A program made the position numbers and the translations under genes. This document shows positions 1,850 through 23,500 of a DNA stretch of 64,000 nt, piece by piece. Under the pieces are notes generated by a model. It worked only from the letters and a program-made list of their open reading frames with translations. It had not been told where the DNA came from and did not search any database. The stretch is from Lamellibrachia satsuma (taxonomy: Eukaryota > Annelida > Polychaeta > Sabellida > Siboglinidae): assembly GCA_033239005.1 (NCBI GenBank), contig BSQZ01000021.1, positions 8,389,516 to 8,453,515 of the forward strand, in the 5' to 3' direction. How positions within the stretch are numbered: the stretch's first letter is position 1; each line of letters starts with the position of its first letter.

Positions 1850-4489
1850 CAGTATCAATGCCAGCCTCACCCCAGACTTCAGGGATAAACAGTATCAGTG
1901 CCAGCCTCACCCCTGACTTCAGGGATAAACAGTATCAGTGCCAGCCTCAACCCAGACTTCAGGGATAAACAGTATCAGTGCCAGCCTCAACCCAGACTTC
2001 AGGGATAAACAGTATCAGTGCCAGCCTCAACCCAGACTTCAGGTATAAACAGTATCAGTGCCAACCTCAACCCAGACTTCAGGGATAAACAGTATCAGTG
2101 TCAACCTCAACCCAGACTTCAGGGATGAACAGTATCAGTGCCAACCTCAACCCAGACTTCAGGGATAAACAGTATCAGTGCCAACCTCAACCCAGACTTC
2201 AGGGATAAACAGTATGAGTGCCAGCCTCAACCCAGACTTCAGGGATAAACAGTATCAGTGCCAGCCTCACCCCTGACTTCAGTGATAAACAGTATCAGTG
2301 CCAGCCTCAACCCAGACTTCAGGGATAAACAGTATCAGTGTCAACCTCAACCCAGACTTCAGGGATAAACAGTATCAGTGCCAATCTCAACCCAGACTTC
2401 AGGGATAAACAGTATCAGTGCCAACCTCAACCCAGACTTCAGGGATAAACAGTATGAGTGCCAGCCTCAACCCAGACTTCAGGGATAAACAGTATCAGTG
2501 CCAGCCTCACCCCGGACTTCAGGGATAAACAGTATCAGTGCCAGCCTCACCCCTCACTTCAGGGATAAACAGTATCAGTGCCAGCCTCAACCCAGACTTC
2601 AGGGATAAACAGTATCAGTGCCAGCCTCAACCCAGACTTCAGGGATAAACAGTATCAGTGCCAACCTCAACCCAGACTTCAGGGATAAACAGTATCAGTG
2701 CCAACCTCAACCCAGACTTCAGGGATAAACAGTATCAGTGCCAACCTCAACCCAGACTTCAGGGATAAACAGTATCAGTGTCAGCCTCAACCCAGACTTC
2801 AGGGATAAACAGTATCAGTGCCAACCTCAACCCAGACTTCAGGGATAAACAGTATCAGTGCCAACCTCAACCCAGACTTCAGGGATAAACAGTATCAGTG
2901 TCAGCCTCAACCCGGACTTCAGGGATAAACAGTATCAGTGCCAACCTCAACCGAGACTTCAGGGATAAACAGTATCAGTGCCAACCTCAACCCAGACTTC
3001 AGGGATAAACAGTATCAGTGTCAGCCTCACCCCGGACTTCAGGGATAAACAGTATCAGTGCCAACCTCAACCCAGACTTCAGGGATAAACAGTATCAGTG
3101 CCAGCCTCAACCCAGACTTCAGGGATAAACAGTATCAGTGTCAGCCTCACCCCGGACTTCAGGGATAAACAGTATCAGTGCCAACCTCAACCCAGACTTC
3201 AGGGATAAACAGTATCAGTGTCAGCCTCAACCCAGACTTCAGGGATAAACAGTATCAGTGCCAACCTCAACCCAGACTTCAGGGATAAACAGTATCAGTG
3301 CCAACCTCAACCCAGACTTCAGGGATAAACAGTATCAGTGTCAGCCTCAACCCGGACTTCAGGGATAAAGAGTATCAGTGCCAACCTCAACCCGGACTTC
3401 AGGGATAAACAGTATCAGTGCCAGCCTCACCACGGACTTCAGGGATAAACAGTATCAGTGCCAACCTCAACCCAGACTTCAGGGATAAACAGTATCAGTG
3501 TCAGCCTCAACCCAGACTTCAGGGATAAACAGTATCAGTGCCAACCTCAACCCAGACTTCAGGGATAAACAGTATCAGTGCCAACCTCAACCCAGACTTC
3601 AGGGATAAACAGTATCAGTGTCAGCCTCAACCCGGACTTCAGGGATAAAGAGTATCAGTGCCAACCTCAACCCAGACTTCAGGGATAAACAGTATCAGTG
3701 CCAACCTCAACCCAGACTTCAGGGATAAACAGTATCAGTGTCAGCCTCAACCCGGACTTCAGGGATAAACAGTATCAGTGCCAACCTCAACCCAGACTTC
3801 AGGGATAAACAGTATCAGTGCCAACCTCAACCCAGACTTCAGGGATAAACAGTATCAGTGTCAGCCTCAACCCGGACTTCAGGGATAAACAGTAACAGTG
3901 CCAACCTCAACCCAGACTTCAGGGATAAACAGTATCAGTGCCAGCCTCACCCCAGACTTCAGGGATAAACAGTATCAGTGCCAGCCTCAACCCGGACTTC
4001 AGGGATAAACAGTATCAGTGCCAGTCTCAACCCCAGACTTCAGGGATAAACAGTATCAGTGCCAGCCTCACCCCTGACTTCAGGGATAAACAGTACCAGT
4101 GCCAGCCTCAACCCAGACTTCAGGGATAAACAGTATCAGTGCCAGCCTCACCCCTGACTTCAGGGATAAACAGTATCAGTGCCAGCCTCAACCCAGACTT
4201 CAGGGATAAACAGTATCAGTGCCAGCCTCACCCCAGACTTCAGGGATAAACAGTATCAGTGCCAGCCTCACCCCAGACTTCAGGGATAAACAGTATCAGT
4301 GTCAGCCTCAACCCAGACTTCAGGGATAAACAGTATCAGTGCCAACCTCAACCCAGACTTCAGGGATAAACAGTATCAGTGCCAGCCTCAACCGGACTTC
4401 AGGGATAAACAGTATCAGTGCCAGCCTCAACCCAGACTTCAGGGATAAACAGTGTCAGTGTCAGCCTCAACCCAGACTTCAGGGATAAA
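1850..4489 (+). repeat. Minisatellite array A, 40-bp unit, about 66 copies
   Basis: The unit is AGGGATAAACAGTATCAGTG followed by CCAGCCTCAACCCAGACTTC, exactly 40 bp. Phase stays constant except for +1 near 4030 (an extra C) and -1 near 4393. Variants include CCAACC, TCAGCC and TCAACC at the start of the second half, CCCGGACTTC, and CTCACCCCTGAC. From about 2780 to 3880 the TCAGCC variant recurs mostly every 120 bp, a trimer higher-order repeat. The rare AGTATGAGTG recurs 240 bp apart (2211, 2451) and GATAAAGAGT 280 bp apart (3361, 3641), both multiples of 40. The array lies in the intron between exons 1155-1318 and 4696-4783. Because 40 is not a multiple of 3, no coding role is expected. Confidence 0.97.
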
Positions 4490-6630: not shown

Positions 6631-6775
6631 TGTCTTCTTGGCCTGCCTGGCGGGAGCACTGCTGGCCGGCACGCTCTATGATGTCATCATTCACCAGGCA
6701 AAGCTTGAGCCTGCTACAAGCCCACTGAACATAGACAGAGTCATGGATGGAGCTCCCCGTATTGGGGTAGATGGG
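6631..6775 (+). CDS. nrf-6-like: NRF-like gene, first transmembrane exon
   Basis: With the split Ile codon the exon reads IVFLACLAGALLAGTLYDVI followed by IHQAKLEP and a polar linker ending in DGAPRIGVDG. A hydrophobic segment closed by GTLYD is diagnostic of the first TM helix of NRF-6-like proteins; the following variable linker is cytosolic in the family. The acceptor is TTCATGTGTAG before 6631. Two phase-0 donors are possible, GGG/GTAACA at 6776 (used here) and GGG/GTAGAT at 6767; the second would shorten the linker by three residues. Transcript data would be needed to choose. Confidence 0.88.
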
Positions 6776-7240
6776 GTAACATCGGAAACAACCCCACTAA
6801 TGTGAGGCCAGGGCGCAAAGACTCCCACTGGTGAGGGCAATTTACATGATATTTAACAAGATTCATCAAGGTTGCCTTCAAAAGCAAAAGTACCAGACGG
6901 CAAGTGGACAGGGAAGTCATAGGATTTTTGTGCCTATGACTTCCTTGTCTACTTGCCATCTGGATTTCGGATGCAAATAAGTGTCAGATTCAGCCCTGGG
7001 TCCTCGTACATGGAGCCACGTTCAGATGCTGCAGGCTCTACTCATGCTGCCGAAACTTGTTTCAAACTTTGCTTCAAAGATCGACGTGGCCAGGTATGAC
7101 AGGAAAGTACATGATTATCAGGTCGACCAGCGACTGCCAAATGAAACGTGCCGTCAACGAATGGTGGATGGCTGTAGAAGGTGAAGGGATGGGAGGTCGC
7201 AACTTTAGGGTGGAGCTGCCGACGTACTCCAGTCTACAGG
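6776..7240. other. Intron start with a long hairpin, otherwise unassigned
   Basis: Apart from the inverted repeat at 6893-6963, this part of the intron is moderately GC-balanced with no recognised gene. An open frame at 6981-7184 shows no known domain and could be a decayed mobile element. Confidence 0.5.
6893..6963. repeat. Imperfect inverted repeat, 31-bp arms, 9-bp loop
   Basis: The left arm (6893-6923, beginning CCAGACGGCAAGTGG) pairs with the right arm (6933-6963, ending CTTGCCATCTGG) at 28 of 31 positions around the loop ATTTTTGTG. The same GATGGCAAGTGGACAAGGAAG sequence occurs at the 3' end of the CR1-like LINE near 15500. The hairpin therefore looks like two head-to-head copies of a LINE 3' terminus (inference). 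Confidence 0.85.
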
Positions 7241-10200
7241 CTGTGATGTACAGGCTGGGAATGGGGAGGAGCAGTGAGCAGACATGTGATGTACAGGCTG
7301 GGAATGGGGAGGAGCAGTGAGCAGACACGCGATGTACAGGCTGGGAATGGGGAGGAGCAGTGAGCAGACACATGATGTACAGGCTGGGAATGGAGAGGAG
7401 CAGTGAGCAGACACGTGATGTACAGGCTGGGAATGGGGAGGAGCAGTTAGCAGACACGTGATGTACAGGCTGGGAATGGAGAGGAGCAGTGAGCAGACAC
7501 GTGATGTACAGGCTGGGAATGGGGAGGAGCAGTGAGCAGACATGTGATGTACAGGCTGGGAATGGAGAGGAGCAGTTAGCAGACACGTGATGTACAGGCT
7601 GGGAATGGAGAGGAGCAGTTAGCAGACACGTGATGTACAGGCTGGGAATGGAGAGGAGCAGTGAGCAGACACGTGATGTACAGGCTGGGAATGGAGAGGA
7701 GCAGTGAGCAGACATGTGATGTACAGGCTGGGAATGGAGAGGAGCAGTGAGCAGACACGTGATGTACAGGCTGGGAATGGGGAGGAGCAGTGAGCAGACA
7801 TGTGATGTACAGGCTGGGAATGGAGAGGAGCAGTGAGCAGACACGTGATGTACAGGCTGGGAATGGGGAGGAGCAGTGAGCAGACACGTGATGTACAGGC
7901 TGGGAATGGAGAGTAGCAGTGAGCAGACACGTGATGTACAGGCTGGGAATGGGGAGGAGCAGTGAGCAGACATGTGATGTACAGGCTGAGAATGGGGAGG
8001 AGCAGTGAGCAGACACGCGATGTACAGGCTGGGAATGGGGAGGAGCAGTGAGCAGACACGTGATGTACAGGCTGGGAATGGAGAGGAGCAGTGAGCAGAC
8101 ACGTGATGTACAGGCTGGGAATGGGGAGGAGCAGTGAGCAGACACGTGATGTACAGGCTGGGAATGGAGAGTAGCAGTGAGCAGACACGTGATGTACAGG
8201 CTGGGAATGGGGAGGAGCAGTGAGCAGACATGTGATGTACAGGCTGGGAATGGGGAGGAGCAGTGAGCAGACACGTGATGTACAGGCTGGGAATGGAGAG
8301 TAGCAGTGAGCAGACATGTGATGTACAGGCTGGGAATGGGGAGGAGCAGTGAGCAGACATGTGATGTACAGGCTGGGAATGGGGAGGAGCAGTGAGCAGA
8401 CACGTGATGTAGAGGCTGGGAATGGAGAGTAGCAGTGAGCAGACATGTGATGTACAGGCTGGGAATGGGGAGGAGCAGTGAGCAGATACGTGATGTACAG
8501 GCTGGGAATGAAGAGTAGCAGTGAGCAGACACGTGATGTACAGGCTGGGAATGAAGAGGAGCAGTGAGCAGACATGTGATGTACAGGCTGGGAATGGAGA
8601 GTAGCAGTGAGCAGACACGTGATGTACAGGCTGGGAATGAAGAGTAGCAGTGAGCAGACACGTGATGTACAGGCTGGGAATGAAGAGGAGCAGTGAGCAG
8701 ACATGTGATGTACAGGCTGGGAATGGAGAGTAGCAGTGAGCAGACACGTGATGTACAGGCTGGGAATGAAGAGTAGCAGTGAGCAGACATGTGATGTACA
8801 GGCTGGGAATGAAGAGTAGCAGTGAGCAGATACGTGATGTACAGGCTGGGAATGAAGAGGAGCAGTGAGCAGACATGTGATGTACAGGCTGGTAATGGAG
8901 AGTAGCAGTGAGCAGATACGTGATGTACAGGCTGGGAATGAAGAGTAGCAGTGAGCAGACACGTGATGTACAGGCTGGGAATGAAGAGGAGCAGTGAGCA
9001 GACATGTGATGTACAGGCTGGGAATGGAGAGTAGCAGTGAGCAGACACGTGATGTACAGGCTGGGAATGGAGAGGAGCAGTGAGCAGACATGTGATGTAC
9101 AGGCTGGTAATGGAGAGTAGCAGTGAGCAGATACGAGTGATGTACAGGCTGGGAATGAAGAGTAGCAGTGAGCAGACACGTGATGTACAGGCTGGGAATG
9201 AAGAGGAGCAGTGAGCAGACACGTGATGTACAGGCTGGGAATGGAGAGGAGCAGTGAGCAGACACGTGATGTACAGGCTGGGAATGGAGAGGAGCAGTGA
9301 GCAGACATGTGATGTACAGGCTGGGAATGGAGAGGAGCAGTGAGCAGACACGTGATGTACAGGCTGGGAATGGAGAGGAGCAGTGAGCAGACACGTGATG
9401 TACAGGCTGGGAATGGAGAGGAGCAGTGAGCAGAGGAGCAGTGAGCAGACAAGTGATGTACAGGCTGGGAATGGGGAGGAGCAGTGAGCAGACAAGTGAT
9501 GTACAGGCTGGGAATGGAGAGGAGCAGTGAGCAGACATGTGATGTACAGGCTGGGAATGGAGAGGAGCAGTGAGCAGACAAGTGATGTACAGGCTGGGAA
9601 TGGAGAGGAGCAGTGAGCAGACATGTGATGTACAGGCTGGGAATGGAGAGGAGCAGTGAGCAGACATGTGATGTACAGGCTGGGAATGGAGAGGAGCAGT
9701 GAGCAGACATGTGAAGTACAGGCTGGGAATGGAGAGGAGCAGTGAGCAGACACGTGATGTACAGGCTGGGAATGGAGAGGAGCAGTGAGCAGATATGTGA
9801 TGTACAGAGGCTGGGAATGGAGAGGAGCAGTGAGCAGATATGTGATGTACAGGCTGGGAATGGAGAGGAGCATTGAGCAGACAGGTGATGTACAGGCTGG
9901 GAATGGAGAGGAGCAGTGAGCAGACATGTGATGTACAGGCTGGGAATGGAGAGGAGCAGTGAGCAGACACGTGATGTACAGGCTGGGAATGGAGAGGAGC
10001 AGTGAGCAGACACGTGATGTACAGGCTGGGAATGGAGAGGAGCAGTGAGCAGACACGTGATGTACAGGCTGGGAATGGAGAGGAGCAGTGAGCAGACACG
10101 TGATGTACAGGCTGGGAATGGAGAGGAGCAGTGAGCAGACATGTGATGTACAGGCTGGGAATGGAGAGGAGCAGTGAGCAGACACGTGATGTACAGGCTG

Positions 10201-10834
10201 GGAATGGAGAGGAGCAGTGAGCAGATATGTGATGTACAGGCTGGGAATGGAGAGGAGCAGTGAGCAGACATGTGATGTACAGGCTGGGAATGGGGAGGAG
10301 CAGTGAGCAGACAAGTGATGTACAGGCTGGGAATGGAGAGGAGCAGTGAGCAGACATGTGATGTACAGGCTGGGAATGGAGAGGAGCAGTGAGCAGACAT
10401 GTGATGTACAGGCTGGGAATGGAGAGGAGCAGTGAGCAGACATGTGATGTACAGGCTGGGAATGGAGAGGAGCAGTGAGCAGACATGTGATGTACAGGCT
10501 GGGAATGGAGAGGAGCAGTGAGCAGACATGTGATGTACAGGCTGGGAATGGAGAGGAGCAGTGAGCAGACACGTGATGTACAGGCTGGGAATGGAGAGGA
10601 GCAGTGAGCAGATATGTGATGTACAGGCTGGGAATGGAGAGGAGCAGTGAGCAGATATGTGATGTACAGGCTGGGAATGGAGAGGAGCATTGAGCAGACA
10701 TGTGATGTACAGGCTGGGAATGGAGAGGAGCAGTGAGCAGACACGTGATGTACAGGCTGGGAATGGAGAGGAGCAGTGAGCAGATATGTGATGTTCAGGC
10801 TGGGAATGGAGAGGAGCAGTGAACAGACACGTGA
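7241..10834 (+). repeat. Minisatellite array B, 43-bp unit, about 84 copies
   Basis: The unit is GTGATGTACAGGCTGGGAAT followed by GGGGAGGAGCAGTGAGCAGACAC (43 bp). Variable sites are GGGGAGG/GAGAGG/GAGAGTAG/AAGAGTAG/AAGAGGAG and CACGTG/CATGTG/CAAGTG/TATGTG/TACGTG. About 8500-9200 shows a trimer (129 bp) higher-order order. The rare GGCTGGTAATGG recurs at 8889 and 9104, exactly 5 units apart. Irregular units occur near 9130, 9435 and 9810. The plus strand is purine-rich. The complement has no stop in any frame of the typical unit, which explains long minus-strand open frames of 43-residue period. It lies in the intron between exons 6631-6775 and 11791-11953. Confidence 0.97.
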
Positions 10835-11790
10835 TGCTGCAATCAAGCTGCTCACAGTTGACAACCCTGTATTGGACCACCCCCTCCCCAAGAAACCTGA
10901 TGCAGAACATGAAGTTGGTGTACATCACACACAGCAAGGTGAAGCAGGTGGCCAGGGAGGGCATACAGAACGGTCTGCAATTTTTGCATTGTTGGACAAG
11001 CAACATTGATGTCGAAACACAAAGCGCAAGAGCAGACAAACAAAGATGCAAGGTGACTGAAGACTCTCCACCTTCACTATGTGGTGAAGAAAACAGAAAA
11101 TGCAAGACAGAAAGCAACAAGTGACAGGAAGAAATGCAGACTACAAAAGAACCAGTGATCGAGTTATTGAACATTTCTTTGTAATTTTCACACTGAACTG
11201 TCAAGAAGACACTTCTTTGTCATTTTCACACAGAACACTTTACTTTCAAGGAGATATTTCTTTGTCGTTTTTACAACGAACACTTCTTTTTATATCATAC
11301 ACTAGTTATTGTGAATTGTTTGTAATATGCATTTGTAGTTATATGTAGAATATCATAAGTCTTATCATATGTATAATAAATATTCATATACTGTTAGTTC
11401 CATTTTTGTTTTCTAAAATCCCAAATGTAGTTCTCATACTGTATATTAAGTGTGTAAAAATACGTTCAGTTGTACCACAGACAATGTGGTTTGTAAAAAA
11501 ATGTGGTCCCCCACCACCGCATTCTCGCATCACACAAAAATCTTTCTCTTAAATGGTTTCTCTCCTCTCACATGCCTGTGAATAAGATAAGTCTGTTGTA
11601 AAACAATGTAGGTCCACTGCAAATCAAATGTAAGTTCTTTACGTAAGACATGTTCATCCTAAGGCAATGTAAGTTTATGTAAGATAGGTCCATCTATGTA
11701 ATGTCAATATCAGTTCACTGTGAGACAGGACAATGTAATATTGTACCTCTGCTGGGTATTTTTTGTTTGTGTCCGTCTGTTTGATCAGAG
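10835..11790. other. Intron remainder, unassigned
   Basis: Between array B and the next exon. Positions 10850-11120 are open in two plus-strand frames but show no known domain. Positions 11150-11290 contain loose repeats of ACTTCTTTGT with TTTTCACACNGAACAC. From about 11600 to 11740 there are decayed direct repeats of AATGTAAGT. Nothing is assigned. Confidence 0.5.
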
Positions 11791-11953
11791 AGTTCAAGAC
11801 TGGTGAAGACGGCTCTCGCCCTGTCTCTCTACTCGAATGGTGCGAAGGTTCTCGATGTGAGCACAACACGAGAGGGAAACCTTGGTATACGCTTCATCAG
11901 CATGACATGGGTGATGCTTGGCCATGTCTACTTCTTCGGTGCCTCATGCTTCA
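11791..11953 (+). CDS. nrf-6-like: NRF-like gene, Acyltransferase-3 start (SLYSNG, IRFISMTW)
   Basis: The exon reads SSRLVKTALALSLYSNGAKV, then LDVSTTREGNLGIRFISMTW and VMLGHVYFFGASCF. CFSxYTNGxKLL followed by GIRFLSMTWVILGHTYFF is the signature entry to the Acyltransferase-3 domain in NRF-6-like proteins; the His of LGH is the conserved polar residue often proposed as catalytic. The donor is TTCA/GTAAGT at 11954 (phase 1). The acceptor CAGAG at 11790 matches the phase-0 donor upstream. A stronger-looking CAG at 11788 would need a phase-1 donor. The core is certain, the first two residues less so. Confidence 0.92.
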
Positions 11954-12510
11954 GTAAGTCTTCTACAGCAGGGCAGTGGGTCAGTATTAGAACACTGGAC
12001 TGTCGATCGAGATGACCAGGGGTCAGGTCCACCTACTGCCGCCTTGAAACTTGGGGAATTTACATTTACCCCACTTTGTCTGTATCTTTTGAGAGAGACA
12101 CTAAAAGCTCACGGGAAAGTAAAAGATCCTGCAGAAGGAGATGGATAAGGCATATCATAGACTGGCTAACTCTAGAGCTAGAAGGGAAACTCTGAAAATA
12201 AACCATTCTTTTGTTAGCCCTGGGCAGAGTTGTTTGGAACATAACCTCATAAGTCATAAGCAGTTATGGTGTTCTAGGAGCAAGGTTCTTAGTAACTTAA
12301 TATACATGGGTGTACCTATGAAGGAATATGAGTTGTTCTACATTGGCAGTGAGAAATAGCATTTTCTAAATGTATCGATTGACTGTAATTATGAGTAATC
12401 GTAACCGATTATAAGTTTTGTCTGAGTTACTGAATCAACTAACCAACCCCATTCAGCATGGTTTTGTGGTTATATGTGTATTAAATTGTGGCCATTTTGA
12501 TTGATTTCAG
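11954..12510. other. Intron with a SINE
   Basis: Holds the SINE at about 11975-12145. The stretch 12150-12500 shows nothing recognisable except the acceptor TTGATTTCAG before 12511. Confidence 0.6.
11975..12145 (+). mobile_element. tRNA-derived SINE (old copy)
   Basis: A degenerate tRNA-like head (GTCAGTATTAGAACACTGGAC, then GGGGTCAGGTCCACC near the B-box position) is followed by a body containing CTACTGCC, ACCCCACTTTGTCTGT, GAGACACTAAAAGC and GTAAAAGATCC. It matches the better preserved SINE at 15000 element by element. A and B boxes are decayed, so it is probably inactive. Confidence 0.7.
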
Positions 12511-12604
12511 AGAACCCTGTCATCCTGTTGTCGTACTTCAAGCGGTTCACCTTCCAAGCTGTCTTGAGTGGCACAGTGTCAGTAGACTCGTTCTTAGTGA
12601 TAAG
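12511..12604 (+). CDS. nrf-6-like: NRF-like gene, Acyltransferase-3 exon (TVSVDSF)
   Basis: With the split codon the exon reads KNPVILLSYFKRFTFQAVLS then GTVSVDSFLVIS. The block FQxxxxxTVSVDTFFxxSG is strongly conserved in the family. The acceptor is TTGATTTCAG, phase 1 in. The donor is AAG/GTTAGT at 12605, phase 2 out, completed to AGT (Ser) by the T of the next exon. Confidence 0.93.
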
Positions 12605-12689
12605 GTTAGTTCACTACATGTATATACATGCTTTATATTGCGACTTCTGTGGGATATGTTATCACATTGTTGTGTGACAGTTGTGACTT
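12605..12689. other. Intron start before array C
   Basis: Short AT-rich stretch between the GTTAGT donor and the first array C unit; no feature. Confidence 0.6.
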
Positions 12690-13497
12690 CTGTTTGTTGA
12701 TACAGTGGCACTCTGGTGTCTGTTGATACAGTGGCGCTCTGGTGTCTGTTGATACAGTGGCGCTCTGGTGTCTGTTGATACAGTGGCGCTCTGGTGTCCT
12801 AAATGTAGTTGTTGCAGTTGCACCACTCTGGTGTCTGTTGCTGCAGTGGCACTGTGGTGTCCTAACTGTGTTTGTTGCTACAGTGGCACTATGGTGTCCT
12901 AACTGTGTTTGTTGCTACAGTGGCACTGTGGTGTCCTAACTGTGTTTGTTGCTGCAGTGGCACTATGATGTCCTAACTGTGTTTGTTGCTACAGTGGCAC
13001 TGTGGTGTCCTAACTGTGTTTGTTGCTACAGTGGCACTATGGTGTCCTAACTGTGTTTGTTGCTGCAGTGGCACTGTTGTGTTGTTGTGTTGGAGTCTTA
13101 AATGTGTTTGTTGTTGCAGTGGCACTTTGGTGTCGTAAGTGTGTTTGTTGTTGCAGTGGCACTTTGGTGTTGTAAGTGTGTTTGTTGTTGCAGTGGCACT
13201 TTGGTGTCGTAAGTGTGTTTGTTGTTGCAGTGGCACTTTGGTGTTGTAAGTGTGTTTGTTGTTGCAGTAGCACACTGGTGTCCTAAATGTGGTTGTTGTT
13301 GCAATAGCACTGTGGTGTCCTAACTGTGGCTGCTGCTGCAGAAGCACTCTGGTGTCCAAACTGTGGTTGTGGTTCCAGTAACACTATGGCTGGTGTCCTA
13401 ACTGTGGTTGTTGTTGCAATAGAACTGTGGTGTCCTAACTGTGGTTGTGGTTCCAGTAACACTATGGCTGGTGTCCTAACTGTGGTTGTTGTTGCAG
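12690..13497 (+). repeat. Minisatellite array C: tandemly repeated 3' splice site, about 22 copies
   Basis: The typical 37-bp unit is TGGCACTGTGGTGTCCTAAC plus TGTGTTTGTTGCTACAG. The first four copies (12706, 12732, 12758, 12784) are 26-bp units ending TGTTGATACAG; 37-bp units run from about 12847 to 13310; the last copies include a roughly 78-bp dimer with GGTTCCAGTAACACTATGG. Each canonical unit equals the real acceptor plus the start of exon 13498-13596 (TTGTTGCAG/TGGCACTCTTGTGTCCTA). The array therefore consists of repeated acceptor and exon-start sequence ending directly at the genuine splice site. Confidence 0.95.
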
Positions 13498-13596
13498 TGG
13501 CACTCTTGTGTCCTACCTCCTGCTGCAAGAGATGAAGAGATCAGGAGGACCAAGGAAGACCAACTGGCTGCATTTCTACCTGCATCGTTACTGGAG
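13498..13596 (+). CDS. nrf-6-like: NRF-like gene, Acyltransferase-3 exon (SGTLVSYLLLQEM)
   Basis: Joined to the previous exon it reads SGTLVSYLLLQEMKRSGGPR then KTNWLHFYLHRYWR. SGxLVSYLxLKExKK followed by WxxxYxHRFWRLTP is a core family block with a membrane segment. The acceptor is TTGTTGTTGCAG before 13498, the last of the repeated acceptors of array C. It differs from typical array copies by TAC where they have TAA, so only this copy reads through. The donor is GAG/GTGATT at 13597, phase 2. Confidence 0.93.
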
Positions 13597-13740
13597 GTGA
13601 TTGTGTGCTTTAATGTTCATTAGTCGATTACTTTAACAACTTAATTAGTTGTATTTCTCTTTTTTGGTAAATGAATTTGCATCAGTTGTTTATATTTTAT
13701 CTGTATTAGATAAATGAGTAATCTGTTTTGATGCAGGATG
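13597..13740. other. Intron start, AT-rich
   Basis: No feature recognised before array D. Confidence 0.6.
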
Positions 13741-15000
13741 TGGTGGTCTATGTGGTAGAGCTGTGGGGTGTGGTAGTCTAGGTGGTAGAACTATGGGGTG
13801 TGGTGTTCTAGGTGGTAGAGCTGTGGACGGGGTGGTCTAGGTGGTAGAGCTGTGGGATGGGGTGGTCTAGGTGGTAGAGCTGTGGGATGGGGTGGACTAG
13901 GTGGTAGAGCTGTGGGATGGGGTGGTCTAGATGGTAGAGCTGTGGGATGGGGTGGTCTAAGTGGTAGAGCTGTGGGGTGGGGTGGTCTAGGTGGTAGAGC
14001 TGTGGGATGGGGTGGTCTAGGTGGTAGAGCTGTGGGGTGGGGTGGTCTAGGTGGTAGAGCTGTGGGATGGGGTGGACTAGGTGGTAGAGCTGTGGGACGG
14101 GGTGGTCTAGGTGGTAGAGTTGTCGGATTGGGTGGTCTAGGTGGTAGAGCTTTGGGATGGGGTGGACTAGGTGGTAAAGCTGTGGGATGGGGTGGTCTAG
14201 GTGGTAGAGCTGTGGGATGGGGTGGACTAGGTGGTAGAGCTGTGGGACGGGGTGGTCTAGGTGGTAGAACTGTGGGACGGGGTGGTCTAGGTGGTAAAGC
14301 TGTGGGATGGGGTGGACTAGGTGGTAGAACTGTGGGACGGGGTGGTCTAGGTGGTAGAGCTGTGGGATGGGGTGGACTAGGTGGTAGAACTGTGGGATGG
14401 GGTGGACTAGGTGGTAGAGCTGTGGGATGGGGTGGACTAGGTGGTAGAGCTGTGGGACGGGGTGGTCTAGGTGGTAGAGCTATGGGACGGGGTGGTCTAG
14501 GTGGTAGAGCTGTGGGACGGGGTGGTCTAGGTGGTAGAGCTGTGGGATGGGGTGGTCTAGGTGGTAGAGCTGTGGGATGGGGTGGACTAGGTGGTAAAGC
14601 TGTGGGACGGGGTGGTCTAGGTGGTAGAGCTGTGGGATGGGGTGGACTAGGTGGTAAAGCTGTGGGATGGGGTGGACTAGGTGGTAGAACTGTGGGACGG
14701 GGTGGACTAGGTGGTAGAGCTGTGGGATGGGGTGGTCTAGGTGGTAGAACTGTGGGACGTGGTGGTCTAGGTGGTAGAGCTGTGGGATGGGGTGGTCTAG
14801 GTGGTAGAGCTATGGGATGGGGTGGACTAGGTGGTAGAGCGGTGGGATGGGGAGGTCTAGGTGGTAGAGCTGTGGGACGGGGTGGTCTAGGTGGTAGAGC
14901 TGTGGGGTGGGGAGGTCTAGGTGGTAGAGCTATGGGATGGGGTGGTCTAGGTGGTAGAACTGTGGGACGGGGTGGTCTAAGTGGTAAAGCTGTGGGGCAC
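13741..15000 (+). repeat. Minisatellite array D, 30-bp unit with pol III A box, about 42 copies
   Basis: The unit is GGTGGTCTAGGTGGTAGAGC followed by TGTGGGATGG, exactly 30 bp, with G/A, GGACTAGG and GTAAAGC variants. TGGTCTAGGTGG matches the pol III A box TRGYNNARNNGG perfectly, and the unit continues into the SINE head at 15001 (TGGTCTAAGTGGAAGAGC). The array thus appears to be an amplified SINE or tRNA 5' end. The plus strand is G-rich with repeated GG and GGG/GGGG runs, so G-quadruplexes are possible. Decapeptide-period open frames on both strands (GGLGGRAVGW; PPRPPHPTAL) follow from the 30-bp period and are not taken as genes. Confidence 0.96.
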
Positions 15001-15230
15001 GATGGTCTAAGTGGAAGAGCACTGGACCGTCGGTCAAGGGACGAGGTTCGAAACCACCTACTGGCATTTTGAAACATGGGCAATTTCATTCATCCCACTT
15101 TGCCTGTTTTTTTTGGAAGGAACACTAAAGGCTGTTGGTCCCTTCTACCTGGTGTCTATGCAAGGGGAAGTAAAAGTCCCACACGGGGTAAATGTAGAAC
15201 CAGCAGTGGACTCCATCTCTCATGAGCCAC
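15001..15230 (+). mobile_element. tRNA-derived SINE adjoining array D
   Basis: A box TGGTCTAAGTGG (15003-15014) and B box GGTTCGAAACC (15045-15055; 10 of 11 to GGTTCRANYCC), about 30 bp apart, form a tRNA-like head. The body has CTACTGGC, CATCCCACTTTGCCTG, GAACACTAAAGGC, CTACCTGGTGTCTATGCAAG and GTAAAAGTCCC. It shares this order with the copies at 5265 and 11975. No clear target-site duplication is seen, since its 5' side runs into array D. Confidence 0.85.
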
Positions 15231-15309
15231 TGCAGAAGTGTCGGTGACTTATTTTCTTTTTCAAACAATGCTACATGTTTGACATATTATGTTTAATTTT
15301 CTTTGGCAG

Positions 15310-15472
<163 letters not shown>

Positions 15473-15474
15473 CA

Positions 15475-16085
15475 AAATTTGTCATCCAAGCCAATGACCC
15501 AGATGGCAAGTGGACAAGGAAGCCATTGGCTTATCGAGAGTCCAACAATGTTCATCTCCTGAGATATGTGTCAACCTTGTTTTTAAACATATTCACGCTG
15601 CTAGCAGTTACACAATCCGTAAACAATTTGTTCCATTCATTTATTGTCCTCTGTGAGAACAAGTACTTCCTGGTTTCCAATTAACACTGATCCTTTAGTA
15701 ATTTGACCTCATGTCCTCTAGTTCTACTATCTTTCTTGAGTGTGAAAAACATATTTGCATCAATATTTTCGTACCTATTCAATATCTTAAAAACTTCAAT
15801 GTGATCTCTTAACCTCCTTGTCTCTAGAGTTGTTAAACCACATTCTTTCAGGTGTTCTTCATAACTAAAGTCTCTCAGTTCTGGAATAATTTTAGTAGCT
15901 CTCCTCTGTATGCATTGAAGCGTATATATATCCTTATTATGATGTAGTCTCCATGCTTGTATACAGTATTCTAAATGAAGTGTAATTACTTTATACAGAT
16001 GTATAATTAGCTTTTTTCCTTGTACGTTATGTTTCTCCTAATCAACCCAAGAAGGTGATTACCCTTTGAAGCTGCAATACCACAC

Positions 16086-16127
<42 letters not shown>

Positions 16128-16860
16128 GGCGCGATGGTATACCGGTTAGAAGGCCGGACTCTCAATCTAGAGAACCCGGTTTCAAATCCCACTGTGGTCA
16201 CTTTGAACCTTTGGCAAGTTTGATCACCCCACGTTGCCATAGTTCACTCAGCTGTATAAATGAGCACCTGGCAATACAGACAGTGAAAGAAATGTAAACG
16301 AATAGTCTTCGTGCAATTGCAGCATGGCTGAATGCTTCCCAGAGAAGTTGAGATGGCCTTGGAATGAACAGGTCTGCCACGGGATGAAGTGTAAAGTGCT
16401 TTGAGCGGTCATACTGACTGGATACCACGCTATATAAGAACGTACCTTTACTGTTCTGAAACTTTCATTTCAGCACTTACTGTTATTCCTAAGTCCTTTT
16501 CTAACAGTAGTACCTAGAACAATATCTCCCATATTATAGTGTACATCCAAGTTACTGTGTCCTGTATGTAGGCATTTGCATTTCCCAAAATTTAATAACG
16601 TGCCAATTTTCAGACCATTTAACTAATTTGTCTAGATCGTTTTGTAAATGTTGTTTATCACCATCAGTGTTAACCTTTCTAAACACTTTTGTTGTGTCAT
16701 CCGCAAATTTCAGTATGTCGCTTGTTATATTGTTGTCCAAATCATTTATATAAATTAGAATAATAAGAATAATAAAGATCCTAATACCGATCGACTCAAA
16801 ACTGATTTCCAGTTTGAAACCTCTCCATCTACTACAACACGCTGTCTTCCATCAGTCAGC
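15475..16860 (-). mobile_element. CR1-like LINE, RT C-terminal half, split by a SINE insertion
   Basis: Minus-strand reading from 16860 gives [19 protein letters not shown], then ILKFADDTTKVFRKVNTDG (RT catalytic FADD near 16700), QNDLDKLVKWSENW, ASKGNHLLGLIRRNI, and QRRATKIIPELRDFSYEEHL with ETRRLRDHIEVFKILNRYEN. This is the typical C-terminal half of a CR1-like polymerase. The 3' end (15475-15540) has an inverted repeat, AAGCCAATG with CATTGGCTT. The element is interrupted at 16090-16449 by (AT)n plus a SINE. Scattered stops and frameshifts show it is dead. Confidence 0.88.
16090..16449 (+). mobile_element. tRNA-derived SINE with (AT)n, nested in the LINE
   Basis: After an (AT)n tract (16090-16125), the SINE opens at GGGGCGCGATGGTATACCGG, with an A-box-like region (TGGTATACCGGTTAGAAGG) and B-box GGTTTCAAATCCC. 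It ends in GTGCTTTGAGCGGTC and GCTATATAAGAACG, a SINE/LINE 3' tail common in marine invertebrates. ACTGTT occurs on both sides (16084-16089 and 16450-16455), consistent with a short target-site duplication, and the LINE reading frame resumes across it. It is a different SINE family from the one at 15001. Confidence 0.85.
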
Positions 16861-16861
16861 C

Positions 16862-17055
<194 letters not shown>

Positions 17056-17210
17056 TGCAGTTTTACAATATTTTTGAAAAATCCTTTTATAGGTATAAAC
17101 AGAAAAAGGACAGCACCAAAGAAATAATGAGTGTTGAACGAGCATCTTCCTGTGTTTGTACTACCATGATGTGTCACTGCATGACGTGTCACTACAAGTG
17201 TCTGTCCTAG
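17056..17210. other. Intron end before the next exon
   Basis: Contains direct repeats of GTGTCACTGCATGA/GTGTCACTACAAG and ends in TGTCTGTCCTAG, the acceptor for the exon at 17211. Confidence 0.7.
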
Positions 17211-17339
17211 ACTGACGCCCCCTACATGCTGGTGATGGCCGTGTGGGCCATCCTCTTCCCCCTCATGGGAAGAATGATGTGTGATTCCTGGTGGAGGAAC
17301 ACCCTCTACATCAACAACCTCTTCCCCTCCACTCAGGAC
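17211..17339 (+). CDS. nrf-6-like: NRF-like gene, Acyltransferase-3 exon with an apparent one-base deletion
   Basis: The in-frame portion reads [20 protein letters not shown] then [20 protein letters not shown], matching the family block (R)LTPPYMLVMxxWxxLxP...WWxNLLYINNFYP. The donor is GAC/GTATGT at 17340, phase 0, and fits the next exon. Entry does not fit: the previous exon ends AG, and ACTGACG followed by five Cs (17218-17222) gives RLTPP, then shifts to a stop at 17230-17232. One more C would keep R-L-T-P-P-Y-M in frame. An in-frame TAG at 17208-17210 excludes an upstream acceptor. Assembly error, polymorphism or a disabling mutation are all possible. Confidence 0.85.
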
Positions 17340-17452
17340 GTATGTCTCATGTTAGTAGTTCTGCTACTGTTTATCTTCTTTTGCAAAAATGCGCATGCAG
17401 ATACACGATTCATATGTTCCACATACACATGCTTAATATGCATTACGCACAC
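17340..17452. other. Intron start
   Basis: Begins with the GTATGT donor and contains TTCATATGTTCCACATACACA, one copy of a degenerate CA-rich motif that recurs at 18085-18150 and 20015-20160. Confidence 0.6.
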
Positions 17453-18077
17453 TAGTGCCCTGCACGGGCCTATAATTTGAGCCCAAGCACGGCCCGCAAT
17501 TAGCAGTTAGAAAATTTTCATGCCTGGCCCAGGCCCACAAACTAGAATTTAAACCCAGGCCCAACCCAGACTGTTAATGTTTGGCCCAGCCCAGCCCAGC
17601 CTGGCCAGTACGTTTCAGTAAGCCCACAAGCCCATGGCCTGCTAATTTTTTATTAAAAGATAAACCTATTATCTAAAACGAAACACAAATAAACTGTAAT
17701 ACATACGTATTGTTTTACTAAATAACATAAAAAATTGAATTAGCTTAACTAAGTTAACTTAATTTAATTAATTAATGTTACCAGTAAGGGCAGTTAATTT
17801 GGTAGTAATTGATATTTCAATTAAATGTCACCTACTGGCACTGACAGCCAGTGACATTTCCAGCAGGCCTGCAGTCACTAGCCTGAGAGATCAGGTTCAG
17901 ACATATGTGAATTAGTACAAGGGTGAATGAATCAGTACTGGGGAAATTGTAGACACTAAACAGTAGACACTAGTTACCACAATTCAGAAATACCAGCTGG
18001 GCAGTGGGCAGTTGCCAGTGAGCAGGTCATTCAGGCAGGCAAGATTTGGAGAGAAGGCCAGCCCGTGCAAGGCACTA
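17453..18077. mobile_element. hAT-like non-autonomous DNA transposon (MITE), 625 bp
   Basis: The ends are TAGTGCCCTGCACGGGC (17453-17469) and its reverse complement GCCCGTGCAAGGCACTA (18061-18077), 16 of 17 matching. The 8-bp flanks are ACGCACAC and ACGCAAAT, a 6 of 8 match compatible with an aged hAT-type target-site duplication. The 5' subterminal region (17470-17640) has many GGCCCAGGCCC-like motifs; the interior is AT-rich and non-coding. The superfamily call rests on the 8-bp duplication and end style; it is inference. Confidence 0.65.
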
Positions 18078-18297
18078 ACGCAAATGTTTCATTACTACCG
18101 GTATGTGTTCCACATACGCACACACGCTTCATATGCAATACGACACACACTTATTTTTAGAATGTCCATAGTGTGGGTCAAAGGATGATATGTTGATGGT
18201 TAAGCATGGTATGATTGCCTCTGCAAATATGTCTAAAAAGTAAACATTTGGGGCTGGCTACTTCCAGCCAAGTGAACTTATGGGGCCATTAAATCTA
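18078..18297. other. Intron, degenerate CA-rich repeat then unassigned
   Basis: A copy of TATGTGTTCCACATACGCAC and related CA-rich sequence, then unassigned DNA up to the LINE target-site duplication. Confidence 0.55.
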
Positions 18298-19589
18298 TGC
18301 AAAAGGCTACTTACTTACTTACTTACTTACTTAATCCTCTTCATGCGGTATCACACATAAGGCCGACACCAAAGAACGCCAATGTTGCCTTTCCGTTGCA
18401 AGCTTCATCACCTGGCCCCAACTCCACCCGAGAGCCTTCATCTCCCGCTCTACTGATCTCCTCCATGTCTCCTTGGGTCTCCCCCTCGCTCTCTTGCCAC
18501 CAGGGGTCCAGCGCATGGCCACTCTTGGAATGGATGTCAGCGGCATTCTGCAGATGTGTCCGATCCATTTCCATCTGCGGCGTTTAACCTCGAGAGAGAG
18601 ATGGGCTGCATACCTGTTCTTTCATGGAGATCCGTGTTGGAGATTTTGTTCGGCCAGTAGATTCGCAGTATCTTCCTGAGGCACTTGTTTTGGAAATCTG
18701 GCATATGCTTTTGGTAACTTTCCATGATTCCGCCGCATATAGTAGCACACTTAGGACGTTGCTCTTGAACAGGCGGATCTTTGTTCTGTTCCTGATCTTG
18801 TTTGTCTTCCAGATATTCTTCAGTGCCGCAAATGCCCCTCTTGCCTTTCTAATCCTTGCCTTAATCTCAGACTCTGAGTTTCCATCTGTTGACACCTTGG
18901 CCCCAAGGTAGGTGAACTCGGTCACCTCTTCAATATCCTTTCCTCCAATCGTGATGGGGTCTGCTGTTTGGCTGTTGTTTCGCAGCATCTTTGTTTTGTT
19001 TATGTTTATCTGCAGCCCAATCTTTTCGGCATTTCTTGCAAGTTCATCGCTTTTTCTTTGGATGTCACTGTAGCGGTGCGACAGAAGAGATATGTCATCT
19101 GCATAGTCTAAATCACCTAATGTTTCTGTGAAGGTCCATTTGATGCCGCTTTTGTCTCCTAGTGCTGTTTCCTTCATGACCCAGTCGATCCCGAGGCAGA
19201 AGAGGAAGGGGGATAGTATGCATCCTTGTTTCACTCCAGTCTTAATTTCAAAATCTTCTGTCAGGTATTGTCCGCAAATGACCTTGGTCCTGAAATCGCC
19301 ATATAACAGTTTGATTATGCTCACAATCTTGGGGGGATTCCATAGTGCCGGAGTATACGCCAGAGAGAGTCTCTGTGAATGCTGTCGAAAGCCTTTTCAA
19401 AATCGACAAAATTTGCGTAGATTGGTGTGTTCCATTCCTGGCACTGCTCCAGGATCTGCCTTAAGGTAAAGATGTGGTCCCACAGGATTTTCCTTTCCTA
19501 AAACCTGCCTGTTCTTTGCGTAACAGTGGGTCAAGGGCTTCTGAAATTCTGTCAAAGATCACCCTGCTGAAAACTTTGCAAAAGGCTAC
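18298..19589 (-). mobile_element. 5'-truncated LINE insertion with 13-bp target-site duplication
   Basis: TGCAAAAGGCTAC flanks the insertion perfectly (18298-18310 and 19577-19589). Inside, the minus strand encodes an RT: VFSRVIFDRISEALDPLLRK, a frameshifted QGC-upstream palm segment, then a 246-codon open stretch (19324-18584) with TGVKQGCILSPFLFCLGIDW, LGDLDYADDISLLSHRYSD (catalytic YADD), FTYLGAKVSTDGN and an Arg/Lys-rich tail. A frameshift precedes KRARGRPKETWRRSVEREMK and WGQVMKLATERQHWRSLV near the C-terminus (18331-18546). The 3' tail is a GTAA tetranucleotide repeat (18311-18334 on the plus strand as TTAC). A clean duplication with few frame breaks suggests a fairly recent insertion. 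The clade is not assigned. Confidence 0.93.
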
Positions 19590-19960
19590 ATTCATGCCAA
19601 AAATATGCATCTGTAACATGATTATTCTATACGAACTACGTAGAATATAATATGTACTGTGTAATGTGTGTGCTGTGTATGCAATACTATGCAATACTAT
19701 GCATTGCTATTATATGAAATGTCTCTATTAAAAGAATGCACATTATTAAAATTATACCATTGGAAGTCCCATTGTTGAAAAGAGGTTAAACTACATTCTA
19801 ACATATAAAGCACTGGTGTCATTCATAATTCCATCTAAGGTCTCAATTTGCAACTATGTAATACTAAAGAAATAATTTTAAACATTCATTAACCGGAAAT
19901 ATAATTTATAATCAGTTTTCCTTAATATTAAAATAAAAAATCTAAGTTTGTATTAATTTT
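19590..19960. other. AT-rich intron, nothing recognised
   Basis: Contains a short GCAATACTAT direct repeat near 19680-19700 and otherwise no recognisable feature. Confidence 0.6.
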
Positions 19961-20005
19961 TTATGAGGTCCACGCCCGGCCCGACCTGGCCCGGCCCGCT
20001 CACAC
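19961..20005 (-). mobile_element. Possible GGCCCG-rich transposon terminus
   Basis: CGCCCGGCCCGACCTGGCCC and GGCCCGCTCACACTA resemble the TAGTG-starting, GGGCC-rich end of the MITE at 17453 when read on the minus strand (TAGTGTGAGCGGGCCGGG). It may be one end of a related element. No partner end was found. Confidence 0.4.
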
Positions 20006-20410
20006 TAGGCCCGACACACACTTCATTACTATGTGTTCCACATATGCACACATGCGTTACACACACACTTCATTGCTATGTGTTACACACGCACAAACAC
20101 ACACACTTCATATGTTCCACACACACGCTTCAGATTCACAGACACATACACGTTTCATATGATGTGATCCACACAAGCATGCATACCACACACGCACACG
20201 AGCACACACATATTCATGTGCATGTCTGCACTCTCACACACGTGCACACGCAAACACAGATATACAAGCACAATCACGCGTGCATGCACACACACACACA
20301 TGCATGGATGCACATGTGTGCATACACACACACACACACATGCGCACTTCGCGTAATGTGATTCTCCAGCCTTCAAGTCGAAGCCTGCTAGATGTGACTG
20401 AGTGAGTTGC
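20006..20410. repeat. Degenerate CA-rich repeat tract
   Basis: Loose repeats of TTCATTNCTATGTGTTCCACA and (CA)n through to about 20345. Short open frames of Thr/His/Cys here are compositional. Confidence 0.75.
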
Positions 20411-20420
20411 GTTGTTACAG

Positions 20421-20500
20421 TGTATGGGCTGGATGTGGTACGTGGCCAATGACATGCAGTTCTACCTCATCAGTCCCCTCATCCTGGTGCCCATCTTCTG
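20421..20500 (+). CDS. nrf-6-like: NRF-like gene, last exon in window (WYVANDMQF)
   Basis: The exon reads CMGWMWYVANDMQFYLISPL then ILVPIFW. CMGWSWYLANDMQFFxxSPL is one of the most recognisable blocks of the NRF-6 and Acyltransferase-3 domain. The acceptor is GCGTTGTTACAG before 20421, phase 0 in, matching the previous donor. The donor is TG/GTAAGT at 20501, a consensus site, phase 2 out. Remaining transmembrane segments of the domain must be encoded beyond array E, outside the window. Confidence 0.95.
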
Positions 20501-23500
20501 GTAAGTCTCACACAGAAACAGGGCCCATAGACACAAACATACACAGCACCCACATCTCTGTCAATGTTGAAACATTCACAGTTCACTGGGCTCAGGGACA
20601 CAAACATACACAGCACACACATCTCTGTCAATACTGAAACATTCACAGTTCACGGGGCTCAGGGACACAAACATACACAGCACACACATCTCTGTCAATA
20701 TTGAAACATTCACAGTTCACTGGGCTCAGGGACACAAACATACACAGCACACACATCTCTGTCAATATTGAAACATTCACAGTTCACTGGGCTCAGGGAC
20801 ACAAACATAAACAACACACACATCTCTGTCAATATTGAAACATTCACAGTTCACTGGGCTCAGGGACACAAACATACACAACACACACATCTCTGTCAAT
20901 ATTGAAACATTCACAGTTCACTGGGCTCAGGGACACAAACATACACAACACACACATCTCTGTCAATATTGAAACATTCACAGTTCACTGGGCCCAGGGA
21001 CACAAACATACACAACACACACATCTCTGGCAATACTGAAACATTCACAGTTCACTGGGCTCAGGGACACAAACATACACAGCACACACATCTCTGTCAA
21101 TACTGAAACATTCACAGTTCACTGGGCTCAGGGACACAAACATACACAGCACACACATCTCTGGCAATACTGAAACATTCACAGTTCACTGGGCTCAGGG
21201 ACACAAACATACACAGCACACACATCTCTGTCAATATTGAAACATTCACAGTTCACTGGGCTCAGGGACACAAACATACACAGCACATACATCTCTGTCA
21301 ATATTGAAACATTCACAGTTCACTGGTCTCAGGAACACAAACATACACAGCACACACATCTCTGTCAATATTGAAACATTCACAGTTCACTGGGCTCAGG
21401 GACACAAACATACACAACACACACATCTCTGTCAATATTGAAACATTCACAGTTCACTGGGCTCAGGGACACAAACATACACAACACACACATCTCTGTC
21501 AATATTGAAACATTCACAGTTCACTGGGCTCAGGGACACAAACATACACAGCACACACATCTCTGTCAATATTGAAACATTCACAGTTCACTGGGCCTAG
21601 GGACACAAACATACACAGCACACACATCTCTGTCAATATTGAAACATTCACAGTTCACTGGGCTCAGGGACACAAACATACATGGCACACACATCTCTGG
21701 CAATACTGAAACATTCACAGTTCACTGGGCTCAGGGACACAAACATGCACAACACACACACATCTCTGGCAATACTGAAACATTCACAGTTCACTGGGCT
21801 CAGGGACACAAACATGCACAACACACACATCTCTGTCAATATTGAAACATTCACAGTTCACTGGGCCCAGGGACACAAACATACACAGCACACACATCTC
21901 TGTCAATATTGAAACATTCACAGTTCACTGGTCTCAGGGACACAAACATACACAGCACACACATCTCTGTAAATATTGAAACATTCACAGTTCACTGGGC
22001 TCAGGGACACAAACATACACAGCACACACATCTCTGTCAATATTGAAACATTCACAGTTCACTGGGCTCAGGGACACAAACATACACAGCACACACATCT
22101 CTGTCAATACTGAAACATTCACAGTTCACTGGGCCCAGGGACACAAACATACACAGCACACACATCTCTGTCAATATTGAAACATTCACAGTTCACTGGG
22201 CTCAGGGACACAAACATACACAGCACACACATCTCTGTCAATATTGAAACATTCACAGTTCACTGGGCTCAGGGACACAAACATACACAACACACACATC
22301 TCTGTCAATATTGAAACATTCACAGTTCACTGGGCTCAGGGACACAAACATACACAGCACACACATCTCTGTCAATATTGAAACATTCACAGTTCACTGG
22401 GCTCAGGGACACAAACATACACAACACACACATCTCTGGCAATACTGAAACATTCACAGTTCACTGGGCTCAGGGACACAAACATACACAACACACACAT
22501 CTCTGTCAATATTGAAACATTCACAGTTCACTGGGCCCAGGGACACAAACATACACAGCACACACATCTCTGTCAATATTGAAACATTCACAGTTCACTG
22601 GGCTCAGGGACACAAACATACACAACACACACATCTCTGGCAATATTGAAACATTCACAGTTCACTGGGCCCAGGGACACAAACATACACAACACACACA
22701 TCTCTGTCAATATTGAAACATTCACAGTTCATTGGGCTCAGGGACACAAACATACACAACACACACATCTCTGTCAATATTGAAACATTCACAGTTCACT
22801 GGGCTCAGGGACACAAACATACACAACACACACATCTCTGTCAATGTTGAAACATTCACAGTTCACTGGGCTCAGGGACACAAATATACACAACACACAC
22901 ATCTCTGGCAATACTGAAACATTCACAGTTCACTGGGCTCAGGGACACAAACATACACAACACACACATCTCTGTCAATATTGAAACATTCACAGTTCAT
23001 TGGGCTCAGGGACACAAACATACACAACACACACATCTCTGTCAATATTGAAACATTCACAGTTCACTGGGCCCAGGGACACAAACATACACAGCACACA
23101 CATCTCTGTCAATATTGAAACATTCACAGTTCACTGGGCTCAGGGACACAAACATACACAGCACACACATCTCTGTCAATATTGAAACATTCACAGTTCA
23201 CTGGGCCCAGGGACACAAACATACACAGCACACACATCTCTGTCAATATTGAAACATTCACAGTTCACTGGGCTCAGGGACACAAACATACACAACACAC
23301 ACATCTCTGTCAATATTGAAACATTCACAGTTCACTGGGCTCAGGGACACAAACATACACAACACACACATCTCTGTCAATATTGAAACATTCACAGTTC
23401 ACTGGGCTCAGGGACACAAACATACACAACACACACATCTCTGGCAATACTGAAACATTCACAGTTCACTGGGCTCAGGGACACAAACATACACAACACA

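What the first reader, a model, noticed from the sequence alone, without database searches (positions are those of the whole stretch)
12690..13596. A minisatellite built from the gene's own 3' splice site and exon start
Each 37-bp unit of array C reproduces the genuine acceptor plus the first ~18 bases of exon 13498-13596 (TTGTTGCAG/TGGCACTNTGGTGTCCTA). About 22 decoy acceptors therefore sit in series before the real one. In the frame entering from the previous exon, typical decoys read S-G-T-V-V-S then TAA, while the real exon has TAC, so decoy use would give an early stop. This is an unusual architecture that could act as a splice-site counter or NMD switch, or force strong distal-acceptor selection. 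The duplication mechanism clearly had one endpoint inside coding sequence.
Basis: partly seen in the sequence, partly recalled or inferred. Interest (0 to 1): 0.85.

Follow-up and report, generated by a model that had tools for sequence, protein, structure and literature searches.

The report
Splice-site minisatellite in a tubeworm-like gene
In what looks like a deep-sea tubeworm, a short piece of DNA that straddles the end of an intron and the start of the next exon has been copied about 22 times in a row; this kind of repeat is already known from lancelets, and nothing here shows that it controls the gene, which itself looks damaged.

Summary
Between 12691 and 13497 lie 22 tandem copies of the acceptor and exon start of exon 13498-13596: the first four 26 bp apart, most others 37 bp, the ones nearest the exon irregular. 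All 22 carry an AG. 13 of 22 outscore the real acceptor on a recalled human-like matrix and 6 of 22 on one built from this gene's other acceptors, so the decoys are not obviously dead; reading on from any of them meets a stop (22 of 22). Tandem arrays across exon/intron boundaries are a known kind, the "mirages" of amphioxus, reported not to disturb splicing. The gene is NRF6-like and closest to the tubeworms Lamellibrachia and Ridgeia, so this is a mirage outside lancelets. The counter/NMD-switch idea is not supported: this gene copy shows an upstream in-frame stop, a frameshift in a later exon and two deletions, and two other intron arrays also seem to have grown from unrelated sequence. No RNA or second genome could be examined. 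Most novel open reading: four units also carry a perfect GTAAGT donor and bound 15-base frame-keeping microexons.

The parts
12511..12604 (+). upstream coding exon (NRF6-like), ends ...GATAAG|GTTAGT
   Evidence: translation; tblastn with Lamellibrachia satsuma and Ridgeia proteins
12691..12798 (+). first block of the array, 26-bp units (acceptors at 12706, 12732, 12758, 12784)
12799..13082 (+). second block, mainly 37-bp units, most with a CTAAC branch-like motif (acceptors 12818, 12847, 12884, 12921, 12958, 12995, 13032, 13069)
13083..13267 (+). third block, units in which CCTAACT reads CGTAAGT or TGTAAGT; acceptors 13120, 13157, 13194, 13231, each followed 15 bases later by a GTAAGT donor (13135, 13172, 13209, 13246)
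13268..13497 (+). last block, irregular and more diverged units (acceptors 13268, 13308, 13342, 13379, 13423, 13457) running into the genuine acceptor
13498..13596 (+). genuine exon, SGTLVSYLLLQEMKRSGGPRKTNWLHFYLHRYW(R)
   Evidence: 94% identical to L. satsuma over 34 aa
6631..6830 (+). coding exon of the same gene with an in-frame TGA at 6803-6805
   Evidence: tblastn
17211..17339 (+). later coding exon, out of frame by one base after exon 13498-13596; also lacks 11 residues present in Ridgeia

Best explanation
The array is a mirage-type minisatellite. Tandem duplication of a segment that happened to straddle the 3' splice site of exon 13498-13596, followed by unequal exchange or slippage, left about 22 copies on the intron side, while coding constraint kept the last copy intact. 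It is a by-product of a locus that readily turns single-copy sequence into minisatellites. If the gene is transcribed, the genuine acceptor is most likely the main one used: it outscores the five decoys within the last 190 bases, so it may win when the exon is defined together with its donor at 13597; use of a decoy would give an early stop. Shown here: the array, its derivation, the scores, the stops, the damage to the gene. Inferred: the duplication mechanism, acceptor choice and lack of function.
For: Array and derivation. The exon start SGTLVSYLLL stands without insert in the predicted proteins of L. satsuma and Ridgeia, so the exon is the source and the array the copy. Two other arrays in the window seem to have grown from unrelated sequence: the 43-bp array 7243-10836 repeats VMYRLGMERSSEQTRD, a stretch present once in the L. 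satsuma protein, with GTGATG at both ends; the 30-bp array 13736-14996 runs into the head of an element whose body has a second copy near 11988-12109. The five decoys nearest the exon (41-190 bases upstream) score below the real site on both matrices. Gene copy damaged: in-frame TGA, frameshift, two deletions. Precedent: amphioxus mirages, said not to interfere with splicing for Adh3 and globin genes and for Adh and troponin C, with the PGBD5 authors suggesting the same for theirs; passages read.
Against: No RNA data, second individual or orthologous DNA could be examined. 13 of 22 decoys outscore the real site on the recalled matrix and 6 of 22 on the gene-derived one; decoy 13268, 230 bases upstream, does so on both and would make a 329-base exon, so strength alone does not clearly pick the real site. 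All 22 units still carry an AG although some columns vary, which could hint at constraint, though shared descent explains it too. The TGA could be skipped by a donor at 6802 with an acceptor four bases beyond the first AG (model B), and the frameshift lies by a run of C, so a sequence error is possible; pseudogene status is probable, not proven. The L. satsuma model used for comparison is itself incomplete: it ends with this exon, holds an extra segment absent from Ridgeia and has no acyltransferase hit.
Confidence: 0.78

Rival explanations
1. Splice-site counter or NMD switch: some transcripts use decoys, meet the stop and are degraded, so copy number tunes output.
For: 22 of 22 decoy paths meet a stop before 13596, 14 of 22 within 7 codons, against 141 of 552 (26%) AGs in the non-array intron stretches of this gene; many decoys score well.
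Against: The units share descent, so the 14 are not independent. The gene copy already carries an upstream stop. Amphioxus mirages are said not to disturb splicing.
Confidence: 0.07
2. Selection has weakened the decoys nearest the exon so that the real acceptor wins.
For: On the recalled matrix the five decoys nearest the exon are the five weakest of 22; on both matrices they are below the real site.
Against: On the gene-derived matrix they are not the five lowest. The same five units are more diverged on both sides than the 11 regular units 12884-13268: mean ungapped mismatches to consensus 3.0 against 1.4 on the intron side and 4.0 against 1.4 on the exon side (insertions inflate the exon figure). 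Against all 17 other units, which include the 26-bp ones, the figures are 3.0 against 3.0 and 4.0 against 1.8. This fits ordinary decay at an array edge. Two of the five (13379, 13457) are identical over the 37 bases compared, so they are not independent.
Confidence: 0.08
3. Nascent microexons: four units carry an acceptor and a perfect GTAAGT donor 15 bases apart; inclusion of one adds five residues in frame (SGTLV again, or SGTLV followed by F in place of S), a step of the intron-gain model proposed for mirages.
For: Donors at 13135, 13172, 13209, 13246; 4 of 4 such 15-base exons keep the frame without stop, and 5 of 58 acceptor-donor pairs do so in all. Three of these acceptors are at the top of the gene-derived ranking and the fourth close to it; on the recalled matrix they are in the middle.
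Against: 15-base exons are rarely recognised (recalled); the base before GT is C or T rather than G; the insert would fall in a stretch conserved among relatives; GTAAGT occurs 7 times in the first 20.5 kb, 4 of them these, and the four stem from one origin by array growth.
Confidence: 0.04

Closest known systems
Mirage minisatellites of amphioxus (Adh3, globins BflGb6 and BflGb9, troponin C, PGBD5)
   Same: Tandem repeats whose unit spans an exon-intron boundary and carries splice signals; [quoted passage not shown] unit length within the 10-72 bp given for Adh3.
   Different: The host gene is tubeworm-like by protein similarity; about 22 copies rather than 3 and 6 in the two BflGb6 haplotypes; the gene copy looks damaged; a sub-block has gained donors. 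(PMC3087553 and PMC3902484, passages read; the Adh paper itself, PMC117041, is not held.)
Intronic minisatellites linked to splicing (C. elegans CeRep25B; human ABCA7 VNTR)
   Same: Intronic tandem repeats proposed to influence splicing.
   Different: The passages read do not describe units copied from the gene's own splice site (PMC4039745); the ABCA7 paper PMC5954066 was seen only in a search listing with the start of its abstract.
Earthworm metallothionein first-intron minisatellites
   Same: Large minisatellites inside annelid introns.
   Different: The passages read do not describe repeats that copy an exon/intron boundary; they do mention duplications of a fourth exon that are absent from the final transcript (PMC12783039).

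Membership tests
Mirage minisatellite | tandem minisatellite whose unit spans an exon-intron boundary | tested here: met
Mirage minisatellite | units carry splice signals | tested here: met
   22 of 22 with AG (20 in exact register), 9 of 22 with CTAAC 19-22 bases upstream, 4 with GTAAGT
Mirage minisatellite | inner units homogenised, edge units diverged | tested here: inconclusive
   exon-side edge diverged; intron-side edge (26-bp units) nearly uniform
Mirage minisatellite | length polymorphism between haplotypes or cells | not testable with these tools
   only one sequence available
Mirage minisatellite | normal mRNA splicing despite the array | not testable with these tools
   no RNA data; the predicted L. 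satsuma and Ridgeia proteins read straight through this junction, which is not RNA evidence and says nothing of whether they have the array
Mirage minisatellite | found in cephalochordates (the reports seen) | tested here: not met
   protein closest to tubeworms L. satsuma and Ridgeia; Branchiostoma 32-37% in the same search, 44% for one in the shorter search. A matter of range, not of structure
NRF6-like acyltransferase | Acyl_transf_3 domain | tested here: met
   PF01757, E 1e-14, on a hand-joined translation of window exons
Splicing switch / counter | regulated use of array acceptors | not testable with these tools
   needs RNA

The most novel reading that the evidence does not exclude
A mirage caught in the act of making exons in an annelid: four units flanked by a good acceptor and a perfect donor are occasionally spliced in as 15-base, frame-keeping microexons that repeat the exon's own first five residues, so that splice-boundary minisatellites are a general animal route to new exons and introns.
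Probability: 0.04. Interest if true: 0.7.

Novelty: new member of a known kind. Interest (0 to 1): 0.35.

Why it matters
In the listings and passages that I saw, mirages are reported for lancelets only (searches; open-licence papers, listings capped in 20, 29 and 51). A clear case in a tubeworm-like genome suggests that minisatellite growth across splice boundaries is not a lancelet peculiarity, and gives a natural series of about 22 closely related acceptors in which rules of acceptor choice and models of intron gain could be tested.

Tried and rejected
Searching the window's own genome for further copies: the tool was busy each time, so whether the repeat occurs elsewhere is unknown. Other exon boundaries of the gene as mirages: none of 8 other acceptors and 10 donors. 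A tRNA origin for the head of the element next to the 30-bp array: ARAGORN finds no tRNA in 11000-20500, so calling it a tRNA-type SINE would be recall only. Conservation of splice positions within units: mean column identity 0.895 on the intron side and 0.846 on the exon side over 18 units, the real one included and the first five decoys left out; too small and too dependent a difference to argue for selection. Acceptor matrices: one uses frequencies recalled for human sites, the other only 8 acceptors of this gene; neither is a calibrated predictor. Papers: one search was malformed, one found nothing, one on tubeworm genomes gave no splice-boundary repeats in the passages read.

Full report
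What is there. The region 12691-13497 is a compound minisatellite in the intron between exons 12511-12604 and 13498-13596 of an NRF6-like acyltransferase gene (Pfam Acyl_transf_3). Tandem Repeats Finder splits it into a 26-bp block and two 37-bp blocks, the last of which runs 18 bases into the exon. The 24-base pattern of acceptor plus exon start has 19 matches (18 decoys and the real site) against none in 100 shuffles. In register there are 22 decoys before the real AG, 20 with AG in the exact place and 2 with it three bases on.

Which is source and which is copy. The exon start encodes SGTLVSYLLL, and predicted proteins of Lamellibrachia satsuma and Ridgeia piscesae read SGTLVSYLLL at the same place with no insert. 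The coding copy is thus old and the array was copied from it. The unit ends at CCTA, shared by the intron side (CCTAACTG) and the exon (CCTACCTC), which would suit slippage or exchange between short matching stretches; this step is inferred.

Taxon. The best protein matches are the vestimentiferan tubeworms L. satsuma (85% over 42% of the query) and Ridgeia (65% over 86%); the Branchiostoma proteins lie at 32-37% in the same search, and one at 44% in the earlier, shorter search. The window is taken to come from a tubeworm related to Lamellibrachia; this is an inference from one gene.

Acceptor strength. With a recalled human-like matrix 13 of 22 decoys score above the real acceptor, and with a matrix from the gene's 8 other acceptors 6 of 22 do. 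The five decoys nearest the exon, 41 to 190 bases upstream, score below the real site on both; on the first matrix they are the five weakest of 22, on the second they are not. The next decoy, 13268, 230 bases upstream, beats the real site on both. Those five units are also more diverged than the 11 regular units 12884-13268 on the intron side (3.0 against 1.4 mismatches) and the exon side (4.0 against 1.4, inflated by insertions), so decay at the array edge explains the pattern without selection. CTAAC, a branch-site-like motif, stands 19-22 bases before 9 of 22 decoys and before the real site: 12.4 per kb in the array against 0.56 per kb elsewhere in the first 20.5 kb.

Reading frame. Retaining sequence from any decoy meets an in-frame stop before 13596 (22 of 22), within 7 codons for 14 of 22; among 552 AGs in the gene's non-array intron stretches the share is 141. 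Of the 14 early stops 8 are the TAA of CTAAC, 4 that of GTAAGT and 2 that of CTAAAT. Since units descend from one another these are not independent events.

State of the gene. Against both the L. satsuma and the Ridgeia proteins this copy has an in-frame TGA at 6803-6805 and lacks 4 residues next to the conserved GIRF stretch; against Ridgeia it also has a one-base frameshift between exons 13498-13596 and 17211-17339 and lacks 11 residues in the latter. The L. satsuma model ends with the array's exon, so it cannot speak on the last two, and it has no acyltransferase hit of its own. A different donor at 6802 with a different acceptor could skip the stop, and the frameshift lies by a run of C, so errors are possible. 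On balance a pseudogene or decaying copy is likely, which weakens any reading as a regulated switch.

A repeat-prone locus. The 43-bp array 7243-10836 repeats a stretch that the L. satsuma protein has once (VKYRLGMERSSEQTRD), and GTGATG stands at both ends of the array. The 30-bp array 13736-14996 merges into the head of an element whose body has a second copy near 11988-12109. A 67-bp array fills 20530-64000. So minisatellites here seem to arise from whatever sequence is at hand, and one of them happened to include a splice site.

Comparison with what is known. Tandem repeats across exon/intron boundaries are called mirages in amphioxus. [quoted passage not shown] The PGBD5 paper (PMC3902484, passage read) says that Adh and troponin C mirages do not generate aberrant mRNAs and suggests the same for PGBD5. 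The original Adh paper is not held. The two structural features tested (boundary-spanning unit, splice signals) are met, edge divergence is inconclusive, polymorphism and splicing could not be tested, and the host differs. In the listings and passages that I saw from searches I met no mirage outside lancelets; the library holds open-licence papers only and long listings were capped.

Open novel reading. In four units CCTAACT has become CGTAAGT or TGTAAGT, which places a perfect intron-side donor 15 bases after an acceptor. A 15-base exon keeps the frame and adds five residues that repeat the exon's own start. [quoted passage not shown] Use of these sites is untested and unlikely.

Noticed in passing
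20530-64000: A 67-bp satellite, about 649 copies at 97%, fills the rest of the window starting about 28 bases after the donor of exon 20421-20501, so the intron may exceed 43 kb or the gene may be cut off.
   Followed up: no
7243-10836: 43-bp array, 83 copies, apparently grown from a segment that occurs once in the L. satsuma model and is absent from the Ridgeia model; GTGATG at both ends.
   Followed up: partly
13736-14996: 30-bp array that merges into the head of an interspersed element; a second copy of the element's body lies near 11988-12109.
   Followed up: partly
1850-4489: 40-bp array, 66 copies, in another intron of the same gene; origin not traced.
   Followed up: no
18331-19694: Reverse-strand open frames that look like a non-LTR reverse transcriptase (name recalled from the ORF text, not searched).
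   Followed up: no
6631-6830 and 17211-17339: In-frame stop and one-base frameshift in the NRF6-like gene, with two deletions, suggesting a pseudogene.
   Followed up: partly
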